NCBI RefSeq assembly: GCF_017301615.1
Contig: NZ_CP059066.1
Location: forward strand, 806,001 to 870,000
Source of the DNA: Koleobacter methoxysyntrophicus
GTDB taxonomy: Bacteria; Bacillota; Thermosediminibacteria; Koleobacterales; Koleobacteraceae
Length of the DNA: 64,000 nt
Direction of reading: 5' to 3'
Under the pieces are notes generated by a model. That model did not search any database. It saw only the letters and a program-made list of their open reading frames with translations, and was not told the DNA's origin. How positions within the stretch are numbered: position 1 is the first letter of the stretch; every line of letters starts with the position of its first letter. Shown piece after piece: positions 14,530 through 36,180 of this stretch. The translations under genes were made by a program, and so were the position numbers.

Positions 14530-17500
14530 TTATTGTATGGAAAGAGGAATATTTATGGGATTATCTATAATGAAGGTTCTGTTATAGGGAGCATATTCCT
14601 TATGGTCTATAGATATATTAAGAAAGTAGCGGCTCTGCCCGTCAGGTAGACAGACAGTCCCCTTACCGTTTTTCACCTCATATACCCTGCCGTTAATATG
14701 CACAACGGTATTGACAGGTCTTTTTGTCAGGCTATCCCTTACGGTAAGATTTACGTTTAAGCCCTTTCCCGGAATCCTCTCTGCCGGTATCGCATCCACC
14801 AGTAATTCCTTTTGATTTATATATACCCTTACCGGCAGGGCGGAAACAACTTTACCGTTATCGGTGTTTTCTACCATAAGATAACCCAGATATGTCCCCG
14901 GGACATCCGGCAGCGTAAGGTTCACCGGAACCCTCCATATCTCACCTTTTTTCCATAAAGCCTCCGTATTCTCTACATTTATTAAGCCTTTATCCTCCAG
15001 AATCTGCTGCAGATACTCCACACGGGTGTTCCCCCGGGGTATCTTATAACCATCCAGATATGCTATATACTGCCCGGGTTGAGGGTAGAATATCTCTATC
15101 CATTCCCTCCAATCGTTGAAAACGGCAGATTGAGCAATTTCTTCCCACTCTCCCCTTTTGGTGTTATAGTAGTACAGATAAAGGTCTATATCAACTCCCG
15201 GGTCCTGATAACCTTCAAGGGATATCATTAGTTTTAAGGTTCCCGGCGGGACATCTATTATAGGGCCTGTTGTTATCTCATTCTGAAAAACTTCCAGCTC
15301 AAGTTTTTTTACACCCCCTTTAATATCAGCAAGGCCCATCCCTATAACCTTACCGGAAAAATCGCCAAAATGGTTTTCGAGCTCGAATTCCTGGTATACA
15401 CCTTTTACCCTTTCCCCCTCCAGTATTATAATATCCCATGAGGATTCGGACCAGCTTATGCCCTTAATTTCCGCCGATATCCTGTAAATGCTGTGGTCGA
15501 GGGCAAAATCTGCAAGGACAGGGTCGCAGTATACAACTATCTCCCATACCCCTTCTTCGGGTTTTTCAATTTCTATCGATGCCCTGTCTTTTGATTGGGT
15601 CAGGTCAAGCCCTATATATTCCGATCTGTCGACCTCTCTCCCTGAAGGGTCAATAATATGCAGCCTCACCCTTCCCCGATGGATACCCTCTTGGTCCTTC
15701 GGTGTCTCTATCTGCACTATGAATTTATCCATATGAGCGGGGATATTGAAGAAATACCTGTTCCACTTTGCCGGAGATAAAGAATCCTCTTTTTCGAAAA
15801 CATAGTTACTACTTCCCCCGAATTCAAAGGGTATTATTACGGTTACAGGAAGCTCCATGTCTCTTCCATAGGTGTTCGGGTCATCTCCTGTCAAAATAGC
15901 CGTATACAATCCAGGCTTTTCCGGAAGAGTTAAACCCAGCTTTATTTGTCTGCTCTTCCCCTTGGGAAGGATTACTTTTTGCCTGTCCGGTTTCATCCAG
16001 GGCACCGCTGACTTTAAATCTACAGTAAGCGGTGTATTAGAATCAAAATTTGTTAATGAAATAAACAGCCCCTCAGGAACCTCTCCTCTAAAATAAATAC
16101 CGTTTCCCGTCTGGGTAAAGGGATTATATACCGTTGCTGACAATTTAGGCAGACTTTTAAGGTTTTTGAGGTGTTCCCAGGCCCTTTTTACATCAATTAA
16201 ACCGAAACCCTGTTCTGCAGTAGTGTAACCGTCAAGGAACCTCGCTCCCATCTCCAGGGCCCTCCGCAGAGTCTGGTAATTGCAGCTTATGTTTTCCTCC
16301 TTTGCCCTGTTTATTAGAAGGGCAATACTTCCTGAAACATGGGGTGCTGCCATACTGGTGCCGTCCAGCAGGAAATATCCCCCGTTATCCCATATATTAA
16401 CAGTTGATACAGCACTCCCTGGAGCGATAACATTTGGGGTTATTGACCCGTCCAGTCGGGGACCCATGGCACTAAAATACCACAGCCCCTCACTTTTAAC
16501 ATCACAGTTATAATTCAGTTTCCATATCTCCGGGGATATATATGCCCCTACAGTTATAGCTTCTATCCTATCGCCCGGTGTCAGGCTGGTCCCTATTCCC
16601 GGTCCATCATTCCCTGCCGCAATGACAAAAACCACATTGTAACGGGAAGATAGATAATTTATCTTTTGGGCTTGAACACTGGTCCCGGCCCCGGAACTCA
16701 ACAGGGTTCCGATGCTTATATTTATTACATCTGCCCCCATAGTTGCTGCATATTCCATTGCTCTGGATATGCTGTCCCATGACCCGTCCCCCGAAGACCC
16801 CAATGCCTTTAGTGCCATTATCTTAGCCCCCGGAGCAACACCGGTGATTTTCCCGTTGGCCCCTATTATGCCGGCCACATGGGTTCCATGCCCGTTTCCG
16901 TCAAACCCTATCTTTACCTTCTGACCATCGGGTTCTATATGGGCTATGACAAAGGATGACATTTCCACTTCTTCGGTAGTCTGATCGTCCTTGCCGAAAT
17001 AGTTAACCTGATGCCCTTTTGAGTATACCTTCATGGGAATTTCATCGGTTAAATCGCCATCCCTATCAGTATCCACATATACGGTATCATAAAATCCCGG
17101 AATATTGGGGTCCGTTACGAGAATCAGGAAAAAGTCTTCATCATCTCCATCTCTGTTTAAATCCATCTCTATAAAGCCCCTCTCGTCCAGCTGGTTTTCA
17201 TAAAGGAAACCGTAATAATATGCCCCGCTCTTAGATTCTATTCCACCAATCCTTACCCTGCCCTTAAAGGTGTTTATATAGCCATCGACTTTTACAGATT
17301 TATACCTGGTATCTACAAGCCCTTCATCGGTAAAATCCACCCAATCTACGATTTTTGTTTCCCCCGTTGTTGTTTCTTTTAGGTCAGGATGGGCCGCGTC
17401 AACACCGGTATCTATGACGGCAACAATAACCCCCCGCCCGTCAGCCCCACTCTCAAGTGTAAAATCTGCAGCACCTATTTCCCTTTTTGTTATTGAAAGG

Positions 17501-17697
17501 CTGTTCTGCGGTTCTTTAAAGCCGTGAAACCCATGGAGATAGGCAAGAGGGCTTTCTTCCCTCTCAACAACATTAAAATGAAGGGAATTAATGGTTATTT
17601 CTCCGGGTTCCTGACTAAGCACTCCGGTAAGTGAAGCAGTATTGCTTATTGTTATTATAAAGATAGTTAGGAAAAGCCACTTAAATTTGCGTTTCAT
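14530..17697 (-). CDS. Large secreted subtilisin-like serine protease (S8) with lectin-like/Ig-like tail
   Basis: 1055 residues. A signal peptide (about 1-28) is followed by a propeptide-like stretch and an S8 catalytic domain with triad D96 (VIDTGVD), H270 (GNGHGTHVAG) and S448 (DGTSMAAPH), and oxyanion N363. The gap between D96 and H270 is 174 residues, against about 32 in subtilisin; the insert contains two acidic DxNxDGDDED / DTDRDGDLTDE calcium-type loops. About 550 residues of beta-rich extension follow, including repeated jelly-roll or Fn3-like parts. No SLH or LPxTG anchor is visible. It adjoins four SLH protein genes, suggesting a role in maturing or trimming the surface layer. Confidence 0.93.
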   Translation of the reverse strand: MKRKFKWLFLTIFIITISNTASLTGVLSQEPGEITINSLHFNVVEREESPLAYLHGFHGFKEPQNSLSITKREIGAADFTLESGADGRGVIVAVIDTGVDAAHPDLKETTTGETKIVDWVDFTDEGLVDTRYKSVKVDGYINTFKGRVRIGGIESKSGAYYYGFLYENQLDERGFIEMDLNRDGDDEDFFLILVTDPNIPGFYDTVYVDTDRDGDLTDEIPMKVYSKGHQVNYFGKDDQTTEEVEMSSFVIAHIEPDGQKVKIGFDGNGHGTHVAGIIGANGKITGVAPGAKIMALKALGSSGDGSWDSISRAMEYAATMGADVINISIGTLLSSGAGTSVQAQKINYLSSRYNVVFVIAAGNDGPGIGTSLTPGDRIEAITVGAYISPEIWKLNYNCDVKSEGLWYFSAMGPRLDGSITPNVIAPGSAVSTVNIWDNGGYFLLDGTSMAAPHVSGSIALLINRAKEENISCNYQTLRRALEMGARFLDGYTTAEQGFGLIDVKRAWEHLKNLKSLPKLSATVYNPFTQTGNGIYFRGEVPEGLFISLTNFDSNTPLTVDLKSAVPWMKPDRQKVILPKGKSRQIKLGLTLPEKPGLYTAILTGDDPNTYGRDMELPVTVIIPFEFGGSSNYVFEKEDSLSPAKWNRYFFNIPAHMDKFIVQIETPKDQEGIHRGRVRLHIIDPSGREVDRSEYIGLDLTQSKDRASIEIEKPEEGVWEIVVYCDPVLADFALDHSIYRISAEIKGISWSESSWDIIILEGERVKGVYQEFELENHFGDFSGKVIGMGLADIKGGVKKLELEVFQNEITTGPIIDVPPGTLKLMISLEGYQDPGVDIDLYLYYYNTKRGEWEEIAQSAVFNDWREWIEIFYPQPGQYIAYLDGYKIPRGNTRVEYLQQILEDKGLINVENTEALWKKGEIWRVPVNLTLPDVPGTYLGYLMVENTDNGKVVSALPVRVYINQKELLVDAIPAERIPGKGLNVNLTVRDSLTKRPVNTVVHINGRVYEVKNGKGTVCLPDGQSRYFLNISIDHKEYAPYNRTFIIDNPINIPLSIQ

Positions 17698-17787
17698 TTT
17701 ATCCTCCTCATTTGCTGCCCGACCCTTCTATTCCCTAATTTTCCCGTATTAAATGGTATTGGTATCAGGCCTAGAACCAACTTAGTT

Positions 17788-18954
17788 CTATCTTTCGGAA
17801 CCGTCCGTAAAAAGCTTCAGTATCCTTACTTTCCCTGTAGATTTACTGTAAACTATATATGCATTATCACCTTCCTGTGCGCTGTCCAGTTCAATCCTCT
17901 CTCCGTTTCTATATATAACCGTAAAAGGGGTTATATAAGCCTCAACGGGCATCTCTCCTTTTATATATGATATTTTACTGTCCCGTAAATTTATTTCTGA
18001 TAGTTTTCCTCTGTCATCAATGTAATAGGAATCTATAAATCCAACCTTATCTTCAGGATTCAGAATTATAAAGGCCTCATACAGGGGCTCTAGGTCTCTG
18101 ATATCCCCTTTTTTTTCATTTATGAAAACGGATGTATCCGGGCTGATATCAAAAACCGCTGTTGTATCATTTATATTAAGGGTCAGGGTGTTTTTCGTAC
18201 CGTCCCATTCTTCAACAACACCATAATAATGATAAATACCGTGGAGTTTTTTCATCATCCTCTGGACCAGGATGCCCCCCTGTGCCCTTGTAGCATATTC
18301 ATTGGGCCGAAAGGTATTATCAGGCATTCCGGTTATTATCCCCAGTTTTGTTGCAATGTTCACATAGCCTACAGCCCACAGGGGAATATCTCCGGCATCT
18401 TTATACCTTAAGGTGTTTTCCTGTGTTTTTAAGTCCTGGGCCTCCTTTTCGAGATTCAGTGCTCTTACTATCATTGCCGTAATTTCTGTCCGCTTAATAT
18501 TTTCATCGGGAAAAAAATTGCCCTTATCATCCCCCTTTATGATACCCAGTTCCCATGCTGCGGTAATATACCCGTTGGCCCAGTGGGTTACCGGCACATC
18601 CGCGAATTTTGAAGGGACTTCTTTAAGTATTACAGCATCCTGTTCATGGCCCAGGGCACTAACTATCATTTTGGCAAACTGGGCCCTTGTCACCCTTTCC
18701 TCCGGTTTGAAGCTTCCATCTCCATAGCCTTTAATTATACCCCTGGTAACCAGCTGGCTCAATTCCCTTTGTGCCCAGTGATTTTTAATATCCCACAGGC
18801 TTTCCGCCCTAACAACAGCAGGCAGAATGATAAGGGAAAATATAGTTAATATTATTATGAGTTTTTTTCGATTCTTGCATAGATAAATCAATAGCTTCCC
18901 CGGCTCAAGGAAGTGAGCCAGGATTTCACCCCTTTCAAGGTATAATTTGCCCAT
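17788..18954 (-). CDS. SLH-domain surface protein (three SLH repeats plus short C-terminal domain)
   Basis: A signal/anchor at about residues 30-50 (LIIILTIFSLIILPAVVRA) precedes three SLH repeats (about 52-110, 115-175, 180-240), recognisable by HWAQREL..LVTRGIIKGYGDGSFKPEERVTRAQ and two further GIIxG..F.P...xTRA copies. These bind pyruvylated secondary cell-wall polymer. The last ~140 residues are beta-rich, with a DTTAVFDISPDTSVFIN stretch related to the repeat modules of the neighbours at 22.6-26.7 kb. The start is uncertain: ATG 18954 has a weak binding site, and a TTG about 21 codons in follows GGGG at six bases. Adjacent to the subtilase, same direction. Confidence 0.88.
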   Translation of the reverse strand: MGKLYLERGEILAHFLEPGKLLIYLCKNRKKLIIILTIFSLIILPAVVRAESLWDIKNHWAQRELSQLVTRGIIKGYGDGSFKPEERVTRAQFAKMIVSALGHEQDAVILKEVPSKFADVPVTHWANGYITAAWELGIIKGDDKGNFFPDENIKRTEITAMIVRALNLEKEAQDLKTQENTLRYKDAGDIPLWAVGYVNIATKLGIITGMPDNTFRPNEYATRAQGGILVQRMMKKLHGIYHYYGVVEEWDGTKNTLTLNINDTTAVFDISPDTSVFINEKKGDIRDLEPLYEAFIILNPEDKVGFIDSYYIDDRGKLSEINLRDSKISYIKGEMPVEAYITPFTVIYRNGERIELDSAQEGDNAYIVYSKSTGKVRILKLFTDGSER

Positions 18955-19095
18955 CTCTTAGGAATTGATACTGGTCACGAAAATCTTCAAATATAAATAA
19001 TTCTATATAAGTGCGTTTAATCCTTTTTCCTTTTTTTAAAAAACACCTATATACCTTTAGTCACTTTTCTCAGAAAACGAAAAAAGCCCGATATT

Positions 19096-19187
19096 AAATT
19101 AATGGCAAATCCCGGAATAACTGTTTAGACTTAAAGCCTGTAATGGCAGAAAGCAGGATTAAGAGCGGTGCGAACGGCATAGTCATA
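19096..19187 (+). repeat. Internally deleted copy of the 193-195 bp MITE-like repeat
   Basis: Retains TTAATGGCAAATCCCGGA near one end and GCGAACGGC...ATAGTCATA at the other, in the same order as the full copies, but about 100 internal and terminal bases are gone or diverged. It lies between the SLH genes at 17.8 and 19.2 kb. The left inverted terminus is not visible. Confidence 0.55.
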
Positions 19188-19190
19188 TCC

Positions 19191-19229
19191 AAAAAAATGA
19201 CTTCACTGCAAGGGTACGAAAGTGAAGTC
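19191..19229 (-). terminator. Rho-independent terminator of the cohesin-SLH-dockerin gene
   Basis: GACTTCACT...AGTGAAGTC with a 13-base loop, then ATTTTTTT on the minus strand, ten bases past the stop codon. Confidence 0.8.
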
Positions 19230-19239
19230 TTTTTAAGGC

Positions 19240-22200
19240 TTATTCAATATTTTTAGCAATCAGCACTAAATCACATATATTTATTGTGCCGTCTTCTACA
19301 AAATCCAGGCGCGCATCCCAGCCCGGTTCCGACTGACTAAGGGAAAAATATGACATAAACATCATCAGGTCTGCCTTATCTATAGTACCATTACCATCAA
19401 TATCACCTGCTTTTAATGTTATAAACTTTTGAATCTCTTGCTCCCCCCGCAAATCTACTTCCTCAATACAAGCCTTATATCCGGCATAACTTACCCTAAG
19501 GGTGTAAATCCCCGGTTCCAGACCCTCAAAAACAAATCCGCCGTCCCGGTCGCTATAAACCGCTACTTCACCTTCACCTGTTTCAAGGCAAACATGAATG
19601 CCTTCAGCGCCTCCCCTGGCCTGGAGCACTGCCTGCCCGCTGAGGGTTAAAGGTATTTGGCTGGAAAGGTTTTCTATAACAACAAGGATTTCCGCAGAAC
19701 CGGTATTTCCTGCCATATCTACGACCGTTAACCTCATTGTGGCCGGCCCGTCGGCAAACCGGGTAGTATCTATAACCCCCATCTCTCCGTCTTCAATATT
19801 GATATCACCCGCTGCTGACAGCTCCCATGATGCCGGTGTTTCACCCGGTCCTACTTCCAGCCTGTATTCCTTTATATTGGCATCATATACCGACCCCGTC
19901 ACCGTTATCTGCCCTGATATTGTCTGTCCATTATCGGGAAATGTAATTTGTGCAAAGGGTTCTAAGGTATCAATGGTAAACTCCCTGGTAAACAGCCCTG
20001 AATTCCCTGCATTATCGGAAAATCTGCCCGCCAGGAGATACCTCCCGTCCGGCAAACCCTGGAGGTATCCCACATCAAATCCCTTTTTCATCCCTGTTAT
20101 AACCTCTATCCCCAACACCGACCCCTGTTTTATCTCAAGTATTCGGGTAGACGGCACTCCATTGAGCTCAACTTCAAAAGAAACATCACTTATACCCGTT
20201 TGAAAATCGGATATTGAAAGGGTTACGGGGAAAAGGCCCCTTCCGGACCAGGAGGAAATATACTCCCCTTCTTCGGGGACGGTCCCGTTTTCCTCTATAT
20301 TTGGGGGATATTCATCCATTACAACCCATATGGTTTTTGAACCTTCCTTCACCCCCTCCCTGTAATAAGAGAACTCTATTTTATTTTTATAGTAAATTCC
20401 ACCGTTTAACGGCCAGATAACATTGAATCTGCCTTCTGTTAACTCTTGTTCTATACCATTTATTTTCAGGCTGTACCCCGGCTGCACGCTTCCTTTTAAA
20501 AGCACGGTACCCTCTGTAGTAAAGGTTACATCCCCCGGAGGGTTTTCTATAATAAGGGGATCAGTCTGTGAAAGTATTTTCCATCTCCCCTTATTTTCAA
20601 GTTTCTCAATTACAGTATCGCTCTTCTGAAGATATCTAAGGGCTCGAAGGGCAACAGCAGCTCCCTGGGCTCTGGTAGCAATACGTTCCCCTCCAAAACT
20701 CATGTCATCGAAACCTATCATAAGCCCGGCTTCTGAAACGGCTTCAATTACACCACTGAGTTCCCCCGGTATATCATGAAAATCTATAAAGTACGGAGGA
20801 TTTCCCTCTCCTTTTAGGTTAAGCACCCTGGCTGTAATAAGGGCCATATCATATCTTTTAAGGAGTCTGCCCGTAATAAGGATTCCCTTGTTCATGCCCG
20901 CATCAATAAATTCACCGCTGTAATCCTTCTCTTCCCTATAAAAATGGATTACCCGTGTTAAAAGGTCAACAAATTCCCTATCGTTTATTCCCCTATCGGG
21001 CATAAAGGCTTCTGCCCCTTCAGGGGTTAATATACCGGCTTTCCTGAGTTCTTTTATATACTCTGCCGCCCAGTGGCCTTCAATATCGGTATAATACCCC
21101 ATAGCCGGTTCTTTATTCTTACTGCCCGGAACTTCTTTCAACTCTTTTGGGTTATGTGTCTTGCGCCTTTTATTATCCTTCCTTTCGCTATTATCATCCT
21201 CTCCCTGACCGTCATTTCCCCCGTTTTCCCCGCCTTCACCAATATCGTCAGGATAAATAAAGTTTACGGTTATATTCCGCTCGGAGCTATTCCCGGCCTG
21301 ATCAACCGCCTTCAGGGTTATGGTATATGCCCCGCAACTTTCTAAGGTAATAATGGTTTCAAAAGCACCGTCATTAAGGGGAACTGAATTCCCATCAATA
21401 AACAGCTGGTTTTGAAACCCTTCGTCCTCTATCATTCCCCTTACTTCAACACTGTCAGTATAAACGACAACCCCGTCTTCCGGATAATCTATATGAATTA
21501 GCGGGGGAAGAATGTCAAGAATTACTGTTTCCTGCAGTGTATAGGAGTTTCCTGACGGGTCTTCACCGCGGATTTGGATGATATTTTCACCCTCCTTGAG
21601 GGTAATCTCCGAACAAAAGGTCTTTCCCTTCCTATCTATTTCTGCATCCAGCTCATTTACTTTTATCCACGCCATATTGCCGGTATACCCCCCGCAAATA
21701 ATCAGGTTTGCCTCATTGGTCCTGGTGGGTAATGGTGCAATCCACAGAGAAGGTTCTTCTATATCAATATCTATTGTAAGGGGGACAAGCTCAAAGGGGA
21801 TCACCTGACCTTCATCATCAGCAAGTTCTATTTTGAATATTTTATCAATATCTACAGCAGCAGAGCCGAGGGCCCGAAGGGTGATTTTAAGCATACTGCC
21901 GTCACCCGAAATCCCCGGGGTCTTTCCCGTTCTTGTTTCTACATAAAGCCCCCGGCCGGCTGTATTATCTATATCCTGATGTATAAAATCACCTGAAATA
22001 AAATCCCCTGAAGTTATCTCTTCTACTATCAGCATTTCAGGGTTATATTGAAGCTCTGCCGAGAATCCGTAAAGATTATATACCTCTTTTATCATTACCT
22101 CTATGCTGAAGGTATCTTTTGAAATATATTCAGGGGTACTAAATTCGATCTTTGCATTCCCTCCGCTTTTTGCCGGTAAACAAAACGGCCAGGACATCAG

Positions 22201-22245
22201 CAGAGAAAATAATACAACTAGTGATAAAAATCTCCCGACATTCAC
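19240..22245 (-). CDS. Cohesin - Ig-like - SLH - Ig-like - dockerin surface protein
   Basis: 1001 residues with a signal peptide. Order of parts: cohesin-like domain (about 30-160; starts IEFSTPEYISKDTFSIEV, with YGFSAELQYNPEMLIV), Ig-like/bacterial cadherin-type domains (about 165-335), an acidic Gly/Asp linker, three SLH repeats (about 384-560; DIEGHWAAEYIKELRKAGIL first), further Ig-like domains (about 575-870), a carboxypeptidase-regulatory-like domain (about 880-935) and a C-terminal dockerin (GDIDGNGTIDKADLMMF and EDGTINICDLVLIAKNI, the two F-hand loops). SLH anchors it to the wall; cohesin and dockerin allow protein-protein docking. Having both in one chain is unusual. The gene has its own terminator. 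Confidence 0.88.
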   Translation of the reverse strand: MNVGRFLSLVVLFSLLMSWPFCLPAKSGGNAKIEFSTPEYISKDTFSIEVMIKEVYNLYGFSAELQYNPEMLIVEEITSGDFISGDFIHQDIDNTAGRGLYVETRTGKTPGISGDGSMLKITLRALGSAAVDIDKIFKIELADDEGQVIPFELVPLTIDIDIEEPSLWIAPLPTRTNEANLIICGGYTGNMAWIKVNELDAEIDRKGKTFCSEITLKEGENIIQIRGEDPSGNSYTLQETVILDILPPLIHIDYPEDGVVVYTDSVEVRGMIEDEGFQNQLFIDGNSVPLNDGAFETIITLESCGAYTITLKAVDQAGNSSERNITVNFIYPDDIGEGGENGGNDGQGEDDNSERKDNKRRKTHNPKELKEVPGSKNKEPAMGYYTDIEGHWAAEYIKELRKAGILTPEGAEAFMPDRGINDREFVDLLTRVIHFYREEKDYSGEFIDAGMNKGILITGRLLKRYDMALITARVLNLKGEGNPPYFIDFHDIPGELSGVIEAVSEAGLMIGFDDMSFGGERIATRAQGAAVALRALRYLQKSDTVIEKLENKGRWKILSQTDPLIIENPPGDVTFTTEGTVLLKGSVQPGYSLKINGIEQELTEGRFNVIWPLNGGIYYKNKIEFSYYREGVKEGSKTIWVVMDEYPPNIEENGTVPEEGEYISSWSGRGLFPVTLSISDFQTGISDVSFEVELNGVPSTRILEIKQGSVLGIEVITGMKKGFDVGYLQGLPDGRYLLAGRFSDNAGNSGLFTREFTIDTLEPFAQITFPDNGQTISGQITVTGSVYDANIKEYRLEVGPGETPASWELSAAGDINIEDGEMGVIDTTRFADGPATMRLTVVDMAGNTGSAEILVVIENLSSQIPLTLSGQAVLQARGGAEGIHVCLETGEGEVAVYSDRDGGFVFEGLEPGIYTLRVSYAGYKACIEEVDLRGEQEIQKFITLKAGDIDGNGTIDKADLMMFMSYFSLSQSEPGWDARLDFVEDGTINICDLVLIAKNIE

Positions 22246-22350
22246 TTTTTGTCACTCCCTGCCGATAAATTGGCGAAAAGCAGCTTTGCACATAAATGGT
22301 TAATTCTACAAAAACATCCAGTTTTCCTGCAGGAATCGGTAAAAAAATTG

Positions 22351-22379
22351 AAAAAAAATTCCCGGCGAAACACCGGGAA
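22351..22379 (-). terminator. Terminator of the 22.6-kb SLH gene, displaced by a MITE copy
   Basis: TTCCCGGTG-TTT-CGCCGGGAA followed by TTTTTTTTC on the minus strand. The full repeat copy at 22396-22588 lies between this hairpin and the stop codon it served. Confidence 0.8.
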
Positions 22380-22395
22380 AATACACTTTACTATT

Positions 22396-22588
22396 AATAG
22401 CTATATACTTTACTCAGGATACTGCAAGTCTAGTTGAGTAAATGGCAAATCCCGAAGCGACTGTTAATTTGGCTCAAAGCCATGGATGGCGGAGAGTCAA
22501 ATTTCAGAGTGAGCGGAGCATGGAAGCGGAGCGAACGGCAAGCGGAGGGATGCCATTTAATTCTTCCCGAGCTAAGGGAATAGTCATA
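22396..22588 (+). mobile_element. MITE-like repeat, full copy A
   Basis: 193 bp, flanked by TTACTATT (22388-22395) and TTACCATT (22589-22596), a probable 8-bp target duplication with one mismatch. The right end is ATAGTCATA; the left end has decayed to AATAGCTAT. Internally it forms a hairpin (AATTTGGCTC/GAGTCAAATT around GCCATGGATGGC). The right duplication contains the stop codon of the SLH gene, so the insertion happened exactly at its last codons without changing the product. Confidence 0.8.
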
Positions 22589-24727
22589 TTACCATTTAAC
22601 CAGGTCAGCTATAAATGTTCCATCAACCTGGTATTTTCCGAAAATCGTCACGCTATCCCCCGATTCAAGGTACCTGTCGATATACTTCGCCCTAACGGTT
22701 GAATTCCCTTCAACAAAAAGGGTATCTTCTTCATCATAATATACGACCCTGTCGATGTATTGTTTTTTGCCATCGATGTACAATTCTACCGATACAACTA
22801 TAAGTTGGGCATCTTTATTTACGTGTTTTACCTTCCCCCTGATTTCTCCCTGGGGATCTTTGGTTTCTATATCCATTCTTACAACCACATCGCTTTCTGC
22901 CCTCAGGTCCACATAATACCCTTTTACGCCCAGGGGAAGCTCATCAATGGTTATTTCATTACCGTCCATCTTAATCCTGGCATCAGGAGCAAGGACAAAG
23001 GTTTCCTTTTTATTATCCCTGGTTAAAACAGTGATTGAAAGGTCTTCCATTAGGCTGAATCCTTCGATGGTGCCTTCTACACTCTTGTTGACGCTCTCAG
23101 CTTCGATTTCCGTAACGATATTATAAGTAAGGGTCAGGGTTACCTTGTCCCCCTTTCTTATATCCGAAAGCTTTGAACCCCTGTCATTCCTTTCCACATC
23201 AGCATTATTATCAACTGGATATGTTACTTCCTTATCATCTGAAACTAGCGTAATTTCAGGCTTTTCGCTTATAAAGGAAATACCCTTCACAATTCCCTTA
23301 GCTGTCTTTACAGCACTTTCAGCAATTATCTTTACTACCCTGCTGCCCTTTATCTCCAGGTGAACCATGTCGGTATTCTGTATGTTTTCAAGGAGGGCTG
23401 ATTTTCCGTCCCTCGTGATTATCGCATTATCGGATATCTTGTACGTCTCCCTTTCACCATCTTCGTTATTTACCGTGATTATAGAATCAAAATTCACTCC
23501 GCCATAGAAAATTGAGTAGACCGTTCCCTTTACCTCCTTTTCTACGCTTTCTGCCTTTATTTTAACCACTTCACCCGTTTCCTGGTCTACTTCAATGCTG
23601 GCAGTCTGGCCGAAGGCTAAGTCGCCCAGTTCAACCACCTCATTGTCCAGAACAATGAGGGCATTCGAAGCTGTTTTATAAGGCATATCCGTCCCCGTGG
23701 GTAGGGTTATAACAAGGAGATTAGTCTGTGGATTCACCTGTTTTACGGTCCCCGTAATTTTCTGAGTTAGCCTTAATGGCTGAAAGAGTTCCTTTTCATG
23801 GGCTTCCAGGTATTCTGCATAAGAACCCCATGAACTGAGAATAACGGTTATATGGTCTCCCAATACCAGGTCCTGAAGGGATGCTTTTTTCCAGTGTCTG
23901 TATATGGAGGTCGAATTATTTACCGAAATGTTCCTTTCAGAACCATCTTCCTTCCTTATGGTAACTGCAGGCAGGTCCTGGGTACTCACTTTAATAAGTA
24001 TCCCTTTTTCCTCTCTGGCAGTAAGTTTATTTAATAAGGCATCCACCCTGGCAAACAGGGCAGCTGCCTGAGCCCTGCTGATATTTTCATTGGGTCTAAA
24101 GGTGCCATCTTCAAACCCCGTTATAATGCCCTTTTCTACAGCTATCTGCACATAGTTCCGGTAGGCCATAGGGATCTCCGATATGTCCTTAAAATCCATG
24201 TCTATATTTTTAAGGGCTCGGGCTTTTTCCTCAAGGCCTAAAGCCCTTACGGCAAATACTGCTACCTCGTACCGTTTTGCCGCCTCATCACCCCTGAAGT
24301 TTTCCAGATCTTCGCCTGCTATTATCCCTTCTTCCACCCCTACAGCAACATATTTTCTGGCCCATTCAGTGACCAGGTACGGTCCTTTGAAACTGTCGGG
24401 AATCACCCTGTCTTCAGGGATATCCGTATATCCTAGGATCCGAACCAGCATAGTTACAACTTCGTTCCTTGTAACCTTATCTTCAGGGGCAAACCTCCCG
24501 CCTCCCCGACCCGTAATAACGCCTTTTAAAGCCATTTTCTCTATATAAGGTTTTGCCCAATTGTCCTCACTTACATCAGTGAATTCTGCTGAGCTTGCTG
24601 CTGCAAAGCTAATTAATAGGTTCAGCAGCATAACCGTCACTATAAAACTGCCAATCGCTTTTGCTGCCGGTTTCCATCTCATTTCCCATTTCCCCTCCCC
24701 TTTTACCTTGTTGATTCCTTTAAACAA
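22589..24727 (-). CDS. SLH-domain protein with tandem beta-rich (DUF5666-like) repeats
   Basis: 712 residues: signal peptide (about 16-45), three SLH repeats (about 47-230; WAKPYIEKMALKGVITGRGGGRFAPEDKVTRNE, and two more GIIxG copies), then about six repeats of 70-85 residues to the end. Each repeat has the form KGTVxxI...ITV...G....Y.ISDNAxI..DGK...L.NI..GD.V.L...G..V..IxAES, which resembles the small OB/beta-barrel DUF5666-type units. This is wall-attached and probably structural. Closely related to the proteins encoded at 17.8 and 24.9 kb. The stop codon lies in a MITE target duplication. Confidence 0.88.
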   Translation of the reverse strand: MFKGINKVKGEGKWEMRWKPAAKAIGSFIVTVMLLNLLISFAAASSAEFTDVSEDNWAKPYIEKMALKGVITGRGGGRFAPEDKVTRNEVVTMLVRILGYTDIPEDRVIPDSFKGPYLVTEWARKYVAVGVEEGIIAGEDLENFRGDEAAKRYEVAVFAVRALGLEEKARALKNIDMDFKDISEIPMAYRNYVQIAVEKGIITGFEDGTFRPNENISRAQAAALFARVDALLNKLTAREEKGILIKVSTQDLPAVTIRKEDGSERNISVNNSTSIYRHWKKASLQDLVLGDHITVILSSWGSYAEYLEAHEKELFQPLRLTQKITGTVKQVNPQTNLLVITLPTGTDMPYKTASNALIVLDNEVVELGDLAFGQTASIEVDQETGEVVKIKAESVEKEVKGTVYSIFYGGVNFDSIITVNNEDGERETYKISDNAIITRDGKSALLENIQNTDMVHLEIKGSRVVKIIAESAVKTAKGIVKGISFISEKPEITLVSDDKEVTYPVDNNADVERNDRGSKLSDIRKGDKVTLTLTYNIVTEIEAESVNKSVEGTIEGFSLMEDLSITVLTRDNKKETFVLAPDARIKMDGNEITIDELPLGVKGYYVDLRAESDVVVRMDIETKDPQGEIRGKVKHVNKDAQLIVVSVELYIDGKKQYIDRVVYYDEEDTLFVEGNSTVRAKYIDRYLESGDSVTIFGKYQVDGTFIADLVKW

Positions 24728-24780
24728 TTCGACGATAATTAATCTTTTCCTTCCTGAATTTCTTACAAATCGTATTAAAT

Positions 24781-24816
24781 TAACTGCTGCCCCATTTGTT
24801 ACGGGGCAGCAGTTAA
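24781..24816 (-). terminator. Strong hairpin between two SLH genes
   Basis: AACTGCTGCCCC and its complement flank an 8-base loop: a 12-bp near-perfect stem with only a weak T-rich tail (AATTTAATAC). It may be a terminator or an RNA-stabilising hairpin between 24944-26680 and 22589-24727. Confidence 0.6.
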
Positions 24817-24943
24817 TCCAGCAGCAGTTAGTCTATTCTAATTTAAATTCAACTACCCTTCCGTTTTTTATTTTCATTTTTATTCCCTATTTTAATCCTG
24901 GCTATCCTGCTGACATCACCTTTTAGTTCCGGAACCGTTGGGA

Positions 24944-26680
24944 TCAATCACCATTATTTTCATCTTCAACTTCCCCATCTTCATTTTCATCAATTTCCTC
25001 ATCTTCGTTTTCGCCTTCATCCCGGATCTCAGCATCTATTTTAGTAACTATACCGTTATTGCCCTCAATTTCAACTGTATAGCCCGGTTTCAGGTCATAT
25101 ATATCTGCTCCTTCTCCTTCCAGCTCGATCTCAACTTCATCCGATACTTCGTATTTCCGTTCAACATGCTTCTGACCTTTATCGTCTTTTTGTATCAGTA
25201 TAGTTATATATATTTTTTCTCCGATGCGTATTTCCTTCAGGATGCCTTCTGCTTCAAATTCTTCATCTTCATCCTCAAATTCAGACTCTTCATCAATAAT
25301 CTCTATTTCAGTGACTACCCCTCTAATCAGTACCAGTTTTACATATTCCCCTTTTTCTATAGTTCTAAAGGAAACCCTCTTCCTTTCTCTGGTAACTTTA
25401 ACATTCTCATCTACGTTAAGGGTATATCTGTCACCATTTTCGGTTTTTATCCTGATGGATAAAGGGTTCTTCAGAGTAGTGGATATCACTTCCCCCTCAA
25501 ATTCTCTCTTAACCCTCACGGAAATTTCAACTATCTCCCTGTTGCTCCTTACCTGTGCCTTTGCCCAATCCCCTATTTTCAGATCCTCGATCCGGGCCCT
25601 TTTACCATCAATGAGGATCTTAGTATTATCGGTGAATTCAAAGGTTTCGTCGGTATGACCATAAGTGTTCATGGTAACCGTTGACTTATCGGCAATTGTT
25701 AGGGCAGTTATCCTGCCTTCAACAACCCTCAGTATTTTGTCTACATTTTCACGACTCAGCACGTCAATAAATATTACTTTACCGTCTTTATTTAATGTCA
25801 ACTGAACAATGTCCCCAATCCGCAGGTCATCGATATCATAAAAGGATTTATTCCTGTATACAGGGACCCCCTCAAGGAAACTGAAGGTCTTCTCAAAGTC
25901 ATTCCTTAAAAGGAGGGTTATGGTCAGGTCATCCCCGTCTATATCCACAACTTCCCCTTTATTATCCTTTCCTTCATCTTCAACTTCTACTAAGTCATCC
26001 ACCCTGCTGATGAGCACTGCCATTTCCGCCCTGGTTAAAGGTTTATTGGCATGAAACTTGCCGTTTCTATCCCCCACCATTATCCCCAATTCGTTTATAA
26101 GGGCAACGTAACCTACAGCATCTTTGGGTACCTGACCTGCGTCCTTAAAGGGCAGCTTGGCGTTCATCCTCTCTTCGGCCTCTTCTTCCATATCCAGGGC
26201 TCTGATTATATACCTGGCTATCTCATATCGTTTAGCAGGTTCATTTGGATTGAAATACAAAAGCTCTTCAGCTTTTAAAAGCCCTTTTTCCAGGGCTACG
26301 GTCACATAATTAAAGCCTAAAGCCCATGAAATAGATTTGATATTTTTGACCTTTTCCGGTATTGTTTCCAGTTCAAATGCCTCATCTTCCCAACCCATTA
26401 TTCTGAGGGCCATTATTATGCCTTCAAGATGGGTTACATGCCGGTTCGGTTTAAACATATTTGCCCCATACCCTTTAATTATGCCTTTTAAGAACATCTT
26501 ATCTATGGCATCCTTTGCCCAATTCAGGGTATCGGTAACATCTTCAAAGAAGATTCTATCCTTCTGTTTGAATTTCTTAGGGCCTTTTCCTGGTGGTGGT
26601 GCAGCCTGCGCCGTTGAAACTATAATGGTGAAGATTATTGTAAAAACCAGCAACGTCTTTATAAGTCTAGCTTTCTTCAT
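24944..26680 (-). CDS. SLH-domain protein with DUF5666-like repeats and acidic tail
   Basis: 578 residues: signal peptide (about 8-27), three SLH repeats (about 45-235; WAKDAIDKMFLKGIIKGYGANMFKPNRHVTHLE first) and about four beta-rich repeats related to those of the 712-residue neighbour (for example GRITALTIADKSTVTMNTYG... and GEVISTTLKNPLSIRI). The last ~30 residues are almost wholly Glu/Asp/Asn/Gly, a calcium-binding-like tail. It is the first gene of the surface cluster and may carry its main promoter in the 235 bp shared with the divergent acyP gene. Confidence 0.88.
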   Translation of the reverse strand: MKKARLIKTLLVFTIIFTIIVSTAQAAPPPGKGPKKFKQKDRIFFEDVTDTLNWAKDAIDKMFLKGIIKGYGANMFKPNRHVTHLEGIIMALRIMGWEDEAFELETIPEKVKNIKSISWALGFNYVTVALEKGLLKAEELLYFNPNEPAKRYEIARYIIRALDMEEEAEERMNAKLPFKDAGQVPKDAVGYVALINELGIMVGDRNGKFHANKPLTRAEMAVLISRVDDLVEVEDEGKDNKGEVVDIDGDDLTITLLLRNDFEKTFSFLEGVPVYRNKSFYDIDDLRIGDIVQLTLNKDGKVIFIDVLSRENVDKILRVVEGRITALTIADKSTVTMNTYGHTDETFEFTDNTKILIDGKRARIEDLKIGDWAKAQVRSNREIVEISVRVKREFEGEVISTTLKNPLSIRIKTENGDRYTLNVDENVKVTRERKRVSFRTIEKGEYVKLVLIRGVVTEIEIIDEESEFEDEDEEFEAEGILKEIRIGEKIYITILIQKDDKGQKHVERKYEVSDEVEIELEGEGADIYDLKPGYTVEIEGNNGIVTKIDAEIRDEGENEDEEIDENEDGEVEDENNGD

Positions 26681-34705: not shown

Positions 34706-35839
34706 TTAACTGGAAGCCCGTTTTTGGGCGGAGTTTGTCAATTTTAATAATACCTCTTTCAGGGCACTGATGAATCTCTCATTCTGCTCCATGGTTCCTA
34801 TTGTAACCCTTATATAGTCAGGCAGACCGAATATATCCCCTGTCCGTATTATTACCCCGCGTTTTAAGAGTTCTTGAAACACTTCTTGCGAGTCACGATT
34901 TACATTTATCAGCAAAAAATTCGCCTCTGTTGGAACATAAGTTAATCCCATATGGGTCAGGGCATGATAAAGGTATTTTTTGCCCTTTTCAACCATTTCC
35001 CTGCTCCTGGTTATCTGGATTTCGTCTTTAAGACTCTCCAGAGCCCCTGCCTGAGCAATGGAATTTATATTAAATGGCTCCTTAACCCTCTGGATCATAT
35101 CTATAATTTCCTCTGAAGAAATCCCGTACCCGATCCTCAAGCCGGCAAGGCCGTATACCTTAGAAAAGGTCCGCAGGACAATTACATCTTTCCCCTGTCT
35201 AATATACTCTATTCCATCAGGATAATCATCAGATGTTACATACTCGCAGTAGGCCTCATCCAGGACCAGGATTGTACCGCCCGGTAAGCGGTCTATGAAT
35301 TCATCCATTTCCTTCCTGGTAACAATAGTACCTGTAGGGTTATTGGGATTACACAGAAATACCAGTTTTGTTCTCGGCCCAATCTTTGCCCTTATGGCAT
35401 TCACATCCACACGGAAATCCTTTGTAGGAACCTTAATGCATTGGGCTCCCATCAGGGTTGATGCAAATTCATACTCGCTAAAGGACGGATCGGGCATAAT
35501 AATTTCGTCCCCTTCAGCGAGGAAGGTCTCCGCTATTAACTTTATCAGTTCATCGGAACCATTTCCTAAAATAAGCTGTTTCTCTCTTAGATTATATTTT
35601 TCGGCAAGGGCTTTTTTCAGGTGGTAATTATAGCTGTCCGGATAAATATGGGCCGTTTCTGCAGCCCTTTTCATAGCCTCAATGCTTCTTTTTGATGGAC
35701 CGAGGGGATTTTCATTAGAAGCCAGCTTGATTATCTCACTGATTCCAAGCTCCCTTTTAAGTTCTTCCATATGCTTGCCCGGTATATATGGTTTTAGCTG
35801 AAGAATTTCCTTTCTGACCCGCTGTTTTAAATCCTCCAT
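34706..35839 (-). CDS. hisC: Histidinol-phosphate aminotransferase
   Basis: PLP-dependent class I/II aminotransferase of histidine synthesis; members also transaminate aromatic 2-oxo acids. 377 residues from ATG 35839, chosen because AGGAGG lies ten bases ahead (the ATG at 35881 falls in the leader terminator region). Motifs: IKLASNENPLGPS at the N-terminus, LCNPNNPTG, VLDEAYCEYV, and the PLP Lys in TFSKVYGLAGLRIGY. No other his genes are near; it stands in the sporulation/yabS neighbourhood and is preceded by a T-box leader, so it is controlled by charging of a tRNA. Confidence 0.94.
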   Translation of the reverse strand: MEDLKQRVRKEILQLKPYIPGKHMEELKRELGISEIIKLASNENPLGPSKRSIEAMKRAAETAHIYPDSYNYHLKKALAEKYNLREKQLILGNGSDELIKLIAETFLAEGDEIIMPDPSFSEYEFASTLMGAQCIKVPTKDFRVDVNAIRAKIGPRTKLVFLCNPNNPTGTIVTRKEMDEFIDRLPGGTILVLDEAYCEYVTSDDYPDGIEYIRQGKDVIVLRTFSKVYGLAGLRIGYGISSEEIIDMIQRVKEPFNINSIAQAGALESLKDEIQITRSREMVEKGKKYLYHALTHMGLTYVPTEANFLLINVNRDSQEVFQELLKRGVIIRTGDIFGLPDYIRVTIGTMEQNERFISALKEVLLKLTNSAQKRASS

Positions 35840-35871
35840 AAATTTCGAACCTCCTAATCTATAATTGAAAA

Positions 35872-36180
35872 AGCTTCCCATCCCTTATCGGGACGAGAAG
35901 CTGTTCTCGCGGTACCACCCCAGTTGATTTCTAAAAATCCCCTCTTTCAGGGTACTGGAAAGCCCTTTCCTTATACCCCCTTCTTTTTAACGGTAGAAGC
36001 TTCCGGAACCGCCTACTTTCACGGTCTTAACCGTGTTTCAGCTTACAGTTCAGGAGTGAACTTCAACCAACGGTCCTTAAGGTGCTTCCAGTCAAAGGCA
36101 ACCTCTCCCTGAGAAGGTCCGGGGGTCTACTTTACTCCTTCATCACTTTTATGCATTAACTTATTATAAATATGGTGTTA
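35872..36180 (-). promoter_or_regulatory. T-box leader (tRNA-sensing riboswitch) of hisC
   Basis: The minus strand carries the antiterminator core GGGGTGGTACCGCG (about 35908-35921), followed by a terminator hairpin (35872-35902; AGCTTCTCGTCCC and GGGATGGGAAGCT then TTTTTC). Upstream ~200 bases can form the stem I region, including an AGTAGA-type loop and GAGAGG. In the specifier position the sequence GAAGTTCACTCC offers CAC (36056-36058, His), overlapping TTC (Phe). His fits the downstream gene. Uncharged tRNA would bind UGGU and allow read-through into hisC. Confidence 0.88.

What the first reader, a model, noticed from the sequence alone, without database searches (positions are those of the whole stretch)
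19240..22245. Cohesin, SLH and dockerin in a single protein of a non-cellulosomal cluster
The chain has a cohesin-like domain at the N-terminus, three SLH repeats in the middle and a two-loop dockerin at the C-terminus (GDIDGNGTIDKADLM). No glycoside hydrolase lies in the window. Such a protein could form head-to-tail polymers on the cell surface, or recruit dockerin-bearing partners encoded elsewhere. Wall-anchored self-docking would be a different use of the cohesin-dockerin pair.
Basis: partly seen in the sequence, partly recalled or inferred. Interest (0 to 1): 0.7.

Follow-up and report, generated by a model that had tools for sequence, protein, structure and literature searches.

The report
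Wall-anchored protein with cohesin and dockerin
A bacterium that shows no sign of a cellulosome carries its only plug (dockerin) and its only socket (cohesin) on opposite ends of one wall-associated surface protein, conserved across three related families, so the simplest reading is that copies of this protein plug into each other on the cell surface; binding itself is untested.

Summary
The ORF 22245→19240 (−, 1001 aa) has a signal peptide, an N-terminal cohesin (above the Pfam cut-off; AlphaFold pLDDT 89; PDB fold matches all cohesins), Ig-like domains, a degenerate three-repeat SLH region, more Ig domains and a C-terminal two-loop dockerin. Whole-genome searches found one cohesin and one dockerin, both in this ORF, in this genome and in its three order relatives. 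Partners encoded elsewhere in the genome are therefore not supported; homotypic docking is the only pairing this genome detectably offers. GH9 is absent from all four genomes. The gene lies in a conserved cluster with SLH proteins and a secreted subtilase. Elsewhere the modules occur split (Coh-SLH beside Coh-XDoc) or on enzymes (subtilase-Coh-XDoc, GH44-Coh-XDoc), without SLH. Binding, and whether it is between copies or within one chain, is untested. Cautions: weak SLH motifs, one substituted Ca ligand in dockerin loop 2, an orphan cohesin in a classmate. New variant of a known kind.

The parts
22165..22245 (-). GTG start and N-terminal signal sequence (aa 1-27)
   Evidence: Hydrophobic N-terminus in sequence; predicted helix 3-17; GGGAG about 10 nt upstream of GTG
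21751..22164 (-). Cohesin domain (aa 28-165), the only one detected in the genome
   Evidence: Pfam PF00963 33.3 bits; AF2 pLDDT 88.9, pTM 0.82; fold matches cohesins; single in genome
21256..21750 (-). Two Ig-like (Glucodextran_B-type) domains (aa 166-330)
   Evidence: Pfam PF09136; beta strands, pLDDT about 80; the second is missing in ortholog L005
21097..21255 (-). Charged, disordered linker (aa 331-383)
   Evidence: pLDDT 22-37; poorly conserved
20626..21096 (-). Three degenerate SLH repeats (aa 384-540); ITRAE-type motif positions read NDRE, KRYD, TRAQ
   Evidence: Pfam SLH 37.1 bits, two stretches; three repeats in ortholog L006; low pLDDT
19663..20559 (-). Three Ig-like domains (aa 563-861)
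   Evidence: Pfam Glucodextran_B/Big_7/Big_13; beta strands
19417..19662 (-). X module (CarboxypepD_reg-like, aa 862-943) preceding the dockerin
   Evidence: Pfam PF13620; profile A4 aligns across X+dockerin of 4wi0, 4u3s, 2b59, 3kcp, 5k39
19243..19416 (-). Dockerin (aa 944-1001), the only one detected in the genome; Ca loops 948-959 and 981-992
   Evidence: Pfam PF00404 26.2 bits; single in genome; most conserved domain among orthologs
22359..22379 (-). Terminator-like hairpin (9 bp, T8) just upstream of the gene
   Evidence: sequence
17788..18954 (-). SLH protein (388 aa), conserved downstream neighbour
   Evidence: three SLH repeats E 7e-40; same position in L084, L085, L086
14530..17697 (-). 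Secreted S8 subtilase (1055 aa) with D/H/S motifs, conserved second downstream neighbour
   Evidence: Pfam PF00082 E 1.5e-52; same position in L084, L085, L086
14463..14483 (-). Terminator-like hairpin after the subtilase gene
22589..24727 (-). SLH protein (712 aa), conserved upstream neighbour
   Evidence: SLH E 3.3e-31; same position in L084, L085, and upstream in L086
24944..26680 (-). SLH protein (578 aa), further upstream; also in G001
   Evidence: SLH E 2.2e-22; L084 5540-7177

Best explanation
It is a secreted, wall-associated linker protein that carries both halves of one cohesin/X-dockerin pair. After export, the SLH region holds the middle of the chain to the cell wall while rods of Ig domains carry the cohesin at one end and the X-dockerin at the other. 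The C-terminal X-dockerin of one copy then binds, with calcium, the N-terminal cohesin of a neighbouring copy, linking wall-anchored copies head to tail into a surface chain or mesh alongside the SLH proteins and subtilase encoded next to it. Shown here: the domain composition, its conservation, the absence of any other detectable cohesin or dockerin in the genome, and the conserved gene cluster. Inferred: that the two modules bind each other, that binding is between copies rather than within one, and the roles of the mesh and of the protease.
For: One cohesin and one dockerin per genome, both in this ORF (for all four order genomes). Full architecture kept in three families of the order at 27-41% identity. 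The cohesin models as a cohesin. The C-terminus matches X-dockerin dyads over both modules, E 7.8e-15 to 2.5e-10; in cellulosomes the type II dockerin of the primary scaffoldin binds type II cohesins of SLH proteins (PMC6780208). The dockerin is the most conserved domain (22% invariant, others 0-14%). CsaB, the enzyme associated with the SLH wall ligand, is present in three of four genomes. Split form: adjacent Coh-SLH and Coh-XDoc genes in G302 (L126). Precedent: ScaH dockerin recognised its own cohesin (PMC5301203).
Against: No binding test. Loop 2 of the dockerin has Val at a Ca ligand position. The SLH repeats are degenerate, so anchoring may be weak. The full-length model has pTM 0.35 and says nothing about domain contacts. 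Classmate G012 has a cohesin in a beta-galactosidase and no dockerin found, so a cohesin domain need not imply a dockerin partner. The presence of a single pair is an argument by exclusion.
Confidence: 0.45

Rival explanations
1. Intramolecular clasp: the X-dockerin folds back onto the cohesin of the same chain and closes a ring around the SLH-anchored middle, as a stabiliser or a Ca- or protease-controlled switch, not a polymer.
For: Same single pair in one chain; the ends are separated by Ig rods and a disordered 53-residue linker that could allow folding back; the subtilase neighbour could cut it open.
Against: No structural evidence; the full-length model, pTM 0.35, cannot decide. Wall-fixed neighbours at high surface density would favour pairing between copies as well.
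Confidence: 0.2
2. The cohesin- and dockerin-like domains have lost pairing and serve as a generic beta-sandwich and a Ca-binding cap of a large surface protein.
For: Val at a Ca ligand position; orphan cohesin without dockerin in classmate G012; weak SLH.
Against: The dockerin is the best conserved domain and its other loop ligands are intact; all three orthologs have Asn at the changed position. Both modules are retained together in all four genomes.
Confidence: 0.15
3. The two modules do not pair with each other but meet partners from other organisms (a community member's dockerin or cohesin), giving cell-cell or cell-protein adhesion.
For: No other partner inside the genome; cohesins and dockerins are common in related anaerobes, 81 and 50 of 399 sampled genomes of the phylum; ANME S-layer+dockerin proteins were proposed to mediate interaction with bacteria (PMC9012536).
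Against: Cohesin-dockerin recognition is generally species- or type-specific, though cross-species cases are reported (PMC5590126); no data on partners.
Confidence: 0.12
4. A partner with a cohesin or dockerin too diverged for the profiles exists elsewhere in the genome.
For: Profiles can miss diverged modules: Pfam missed the cohesin of ortholog G002, which the family profile (that includes it) covers.
Against: Family-specific profiles at E<=10 found no second cohesin in four genomes, and only two weak partial dockerin matches in two relatives and none in the window's genome.
Confidence: 0.08

Closest known systems
Anchoring scaffoldins of the ScaC/ScaD/ScaF1 type (cohesin + SLH)
   Same: Secreted cohesin joined to SLH repeats
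   Different: Those have no dockerin in the published table and serve genomes with many dockerin proteins; here a dockerin is on the same chain and no other dockerin is detected (PMC6780208)
CipA/ScaA X-dockerin (type II) end
   Same: X module plus dockerin at the C-terminus, aligned over the whole dyad
   Different: No tandem cohesins and no CBM detected; the cohesin is single and lies with SLH on the same chain
Adaptor scaffoldins ScaK/ScaN, and R. flavefaciens ScaH (cohesin + dockerin in one protein)
   Same: Both modules on one chain; ScaH dockerin recognised its own cohesin (PMC5301203)
   Different: The ScaK/ScaN table shows no SLH; all are parts of cellulosome systems with many other partners
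Noncellulosomal cohesins/dockerins of Archaeoglobus fulgidus and ANME archaea
   Same: Pair found outside cellulose degradation; the cohesin fold matches the A. fulgidus cohesin 2xdh best; ANME-2c have S-layer+dockerin proteins (PMC9012536)
   Different: ANME genomes have many such proteins; cohesin, SLH and X-dockerin on one chain as sole carrier is not described in the section read
Enzyme-Coh-XDoc proteins: subtilase-Coh-XDoc (L122), GH44-Coh-XDoc (L090)
   Same: Cohesin and X-dockerin on one chain
   Different: Enzyme in place of SLH; the pair is a C-terminal cassette and not at opposite ends

Membership tests
Cohesin (PF00963) | Sequence match above curated cut-off | tested here: met
   33.3 bits against 24.1; ortholog L005 33.7, L004 only 20.3, L006 not reported
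Cohesin (PF00963) | Cohesin jelly-roll fold | tested here: met
   AF2 pLDDT 88.9, pTM 0.82; the 50 PDB matches listed are cohesin entries, TM up to 0.78
Cohesin (PF00963) | Binds a dockerin | not testable with these tools
   Needs a binding assay
Dockerin | Two Ca-binding loop-helix repeats | tested here: inconclusive
   Both loops and helices present, above cut-off; loop 2 has Val983 at ligand position 3 where orthologs have Asn
X-dockerin (type II-like) dyad | X module immediately before the dockerin, aligned as one unit to solved dyads | tested here: met
   4wi0 7.8e-15, 4u3s 7.6e-14, 2b59 1.6e-12, 5k39 2.5e-10 over the dyad
X-dockerin (type II-like) dyad | Binds a type II cohesin | not testable with these tools
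   Needs a binding assay
SLH surface protein | Three SLH repeats with intact binding motifs | tested here: inconclusive
   Two significant repeats here, three in ortholog L006; motif positions NDRE/KRYD/TRAQ
SLH surface protein | Genome encodes CsaB, for the pyruvylated wall ligand | tested here: met
   G000, G001, G002 above cut-off; not found in G003, 86% complete
Cellulosome scaffoldin system | Many dockerin-bearing enzymes and tandem cohesins | tested here: not met
   One cohesin and one dockerin in the genome, same ORF
Cellulosome scaffoldin system | Cellulases such as GH9 | tested here: not met
   No GH9 in the four genomes; other cellulase families not searched genome-wide

The most novel reading that the evidence does not exclude
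A one-component, wall-anchored self-docking polymer: every unit is at once anchor, socket and plug, so a cohesin/X-dockerin pair knits a surface mesh (a stitched S-layer-like lattice) in a lineage with no cellulosome detected.
Probability: 0.3. Interest if true: 0.75.

Novelty: new variant of a known kind. Interest (0 to 1): 0.55.

Why it matters
Noncellulosomal cohesins and dockerins have been known for years with few assigned functions. Here is a minimal natural case: a complete genome holds exactly one detectable copy of each, on one protein, conserved across three families, so the question of what the pair is for can be asked with two recombinant domains. If it self-docks, it is a calcium-dependent, single-gene surface polymer, also of use as a building block for surface display.

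Tried and rejected
Partners elsewhere in the genome: searched with Pfam and with family profiles at E<=10; none in the window's genome. Cellulosome remnant: no GH9 in four genomes and no plant-polysaccharide hydrolase among the window genes scanned. Full-length AlphaFold model to look for intramolecular docking: pTM 0.35 and no coordinates to inspect, so no inference. Named relatives: a single-sequence scan of genome contigs found none; the alignment found the three orthologs by name. Peer et al. 2009, the survey of noncellulosomal cohesins/dockerins, is not held, so priority on the architecture could not be checked against it. Promoter-like sites in the region are at the chance level, 31 against 28.3 expected, and are not used. 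A tree comparison of cohesin and dockerin was not done, because domains on one chain co-inherit anyway.

Full report
What is there. The ORF at 22245→19240 (− strand, GTG start, 1001 aa) has GGGAG about 10 nt before the start and an N-terminal hydrophobic signal. Pfam finds Cohesin (44-144), Glucodextran_B/Ig domains, SLH, CarboxypepD_reg (868-937) and Dockerin_1 (946-1000), with cohesin, SLH and dockerin above their curated cut-offs.

Does the N-terminal domain model as a cohesin? Yes. AlphaFold2 on the domain with its three orthologs gives pLDDT 88.9 and pTM 0.82. The 50 PDB fold matches listed are all cohesin entries, led by the noncellulosomal cohesin of Archaeoglobus fulgidus (2xdh, E 3.8e-8), with OlpC and ScaC cohesins at TM 0.78. 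A profile of the four domains also picks cohesins first in the PDB by sequence, E 0.0007 to 0.012.

Does the dockerin have its parts? Both loop-helix repeats are present, helices 957-967 and 990-1000. Loop 1 (D948, D950, N952, D956, D959) is complete. Loop 2 (D981, V983, D985, N989, D992) has a valine at position 3; the three orthologs have asparagine there. The dockerin is the most conserved domain of the family: 22% invariant positions against 0-14% elsewhere. A profile of this 140-residue end aligns over both modules with the X-dockerin dyads of A. cellulolyticus ScaA and C. thermocellum CipA and CipB (4wi0 7.8e-15, 4u3s 7.6e-14, 2b59 1.6e-12, 5k39 2.5e-10). The single best PDB hit by E-value, NOMO2, matches only the X-type beta-sandwich. 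In cellulosomes the type II dockerin of the primary scaffoldin attaches it to type II cohesins of SLH proteins (PMC6780208).

The SLH region. Pfam sees two repeats here, the session's own SLH profile two, and three clear ones in ortholog L006. The positions of the wall-binding motif read NDRE, KRYD and TRAQ, and the region is poorly modelled (pLDDT about 36-53). Anchoring is plausible but may be weaker than in the three neighbouring SLH proteins. The gene for CsaB, associated with the wall ligand of SLH domains, is present in this genome and two relatives. SLH domains occur in several other ORFs of the genome.

Only pair in the genome. In the 3.10-Mb single-contig genome, Pfam Cohesin and Dockerin_1 each give one match at E<=10, both in this ORF. 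Family-specific profiles give one cohesin in each of the four order genomes and one strong dockerin in each, with two weak partial dockerin matches (E 0.035 and 0.28) in two relatives only. There is no GH9 in any of the four. So 'recruiting dockerin partners encoded elsewhere' finds no support in this genome, and homotypic docking is the only cohesin-dockerin pairing detectably available.

Relatives and neighbourhood. Orthologs with the same layout are in one genome of the same family (41% identity) and two of other families of the order (31% and 27%). By name these are MAGs labelled Thermoanaerobacterales (DUOC01000063), Thermosediminibacterales (JARRCM010000020) and Firmicutes UBA3567; the window's own organism was not identified. 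The order SLH gene – this gene – SLH gene – S8 subtilase is conserved in G001 and G003, and in G002 with argF/G/H between the first two genes; in G001 the match continues up to ftsH, hpt and tilS. A terminator-like hairpin lies just before this gene (22379-22359) and another after the subtilase (14483-14463), which suggests a transcription unit of this gene, the 388-aa SLH protein and the subtilase (inference).

How unusual. Among all ORFs fetched here, cohesin, SLH and X-dockerin in one chain occur only in these four. Related arrangements are adjacent Coh-SLH and Coh-XDoc genes in G302 (L126), a subtilase-Coh-XDoc chain in G212 (L122) and a GH44-Coh-XDoc chain in a Chloroflexi MAG (L090). This was a sample (ORFs brought in by cohesin, dockerin or similarity searches), not a census. 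In 399 sampled genomes of the phylum, 81 have a cohesin match and 50 a dockerin match. Literature: cohesin-SLH and cohesin-dockerin proteins are ordinary parts of cellulosome systems (PMC6780208, PMC5590126), a scaffoldin dockerin that recognised its own cohesin was measured (ScaH, PMC5301203), and ANME archaea have S-layer+dockerin proteins (PMC9012536). The 2009 survey by Peer et al. was not available, so I do not claim the architecture has never been noted.

Mechanism and limits. My best reading is homotypic docking on the cell surface, linking neighbouring wall-anchored copies. Binding is not shown. An intramolecular clasp is the main rival. Against any pairing stand the changed Ca ligand and a classmate (G012) with a cohesin in a GH2 beta-galactosidase and no dockerin found, which shows that cohesin domains can occur without a dockerin partner in the genome. 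The full-length model (pTM 0.35) does not inform on domain contacts.

Verdict. Observation confirmed; interpretation partly supported; new variant of a known kind; interest 0.55.

Noticed in passing
window 14530-26680: Cluster of three canonical SLH proteins and a secreted S8 subtilase around the gene, largely conserved in order across three families; the role of the subtilase at the surface is unknown.
   Followed up: partly
L126 13485-18494: Split version in genome G302: adjacent genes for Coh-SLH (533 aa) and Coh-XDoc (1135-aa frame), with more Coh/XDoc ORFs in the same stretch, in what looks like a docking cluster.
   Followed up: partly
L122 4240-8277: One ORF of 1346 aa with S8 subtilase, cohesin and X-dockerin: the kind of protease that is a neighbour in the window's order is fused to the docking pair here.
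   Followed up: partly
L130 1062-6578: Cohesin near the end of a GH2 beta-galactosidase in classmate G012, with no dockerin found in that genome: an orphan cohesin.
   Followed up: partly
L085 11943-13167: The downstream SLH gene of genome G003 is split into two overlapping ORFs in different frames (244 and 178 aa): a frameshift or an assembly error.
   Followed up: no
L086 5374-8832: argF, argG and argH lie between the SLH gene and the cohesin/dockerin gene in genome G002, an insertion into the otherwise conserved cluster.
   Followed up: no
window 35886-36152: T-box leader (Rfam RF00230, 104 bits) on the minus strand just upstream of an aminotransferase gene (34706-35881).
   Followed up: no
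window 19270-19305: Dockerin loop 2 (aa 981-992): Val983 replaces the Asn Ca ligand that all three orthologs keep.
   Followed up: partly
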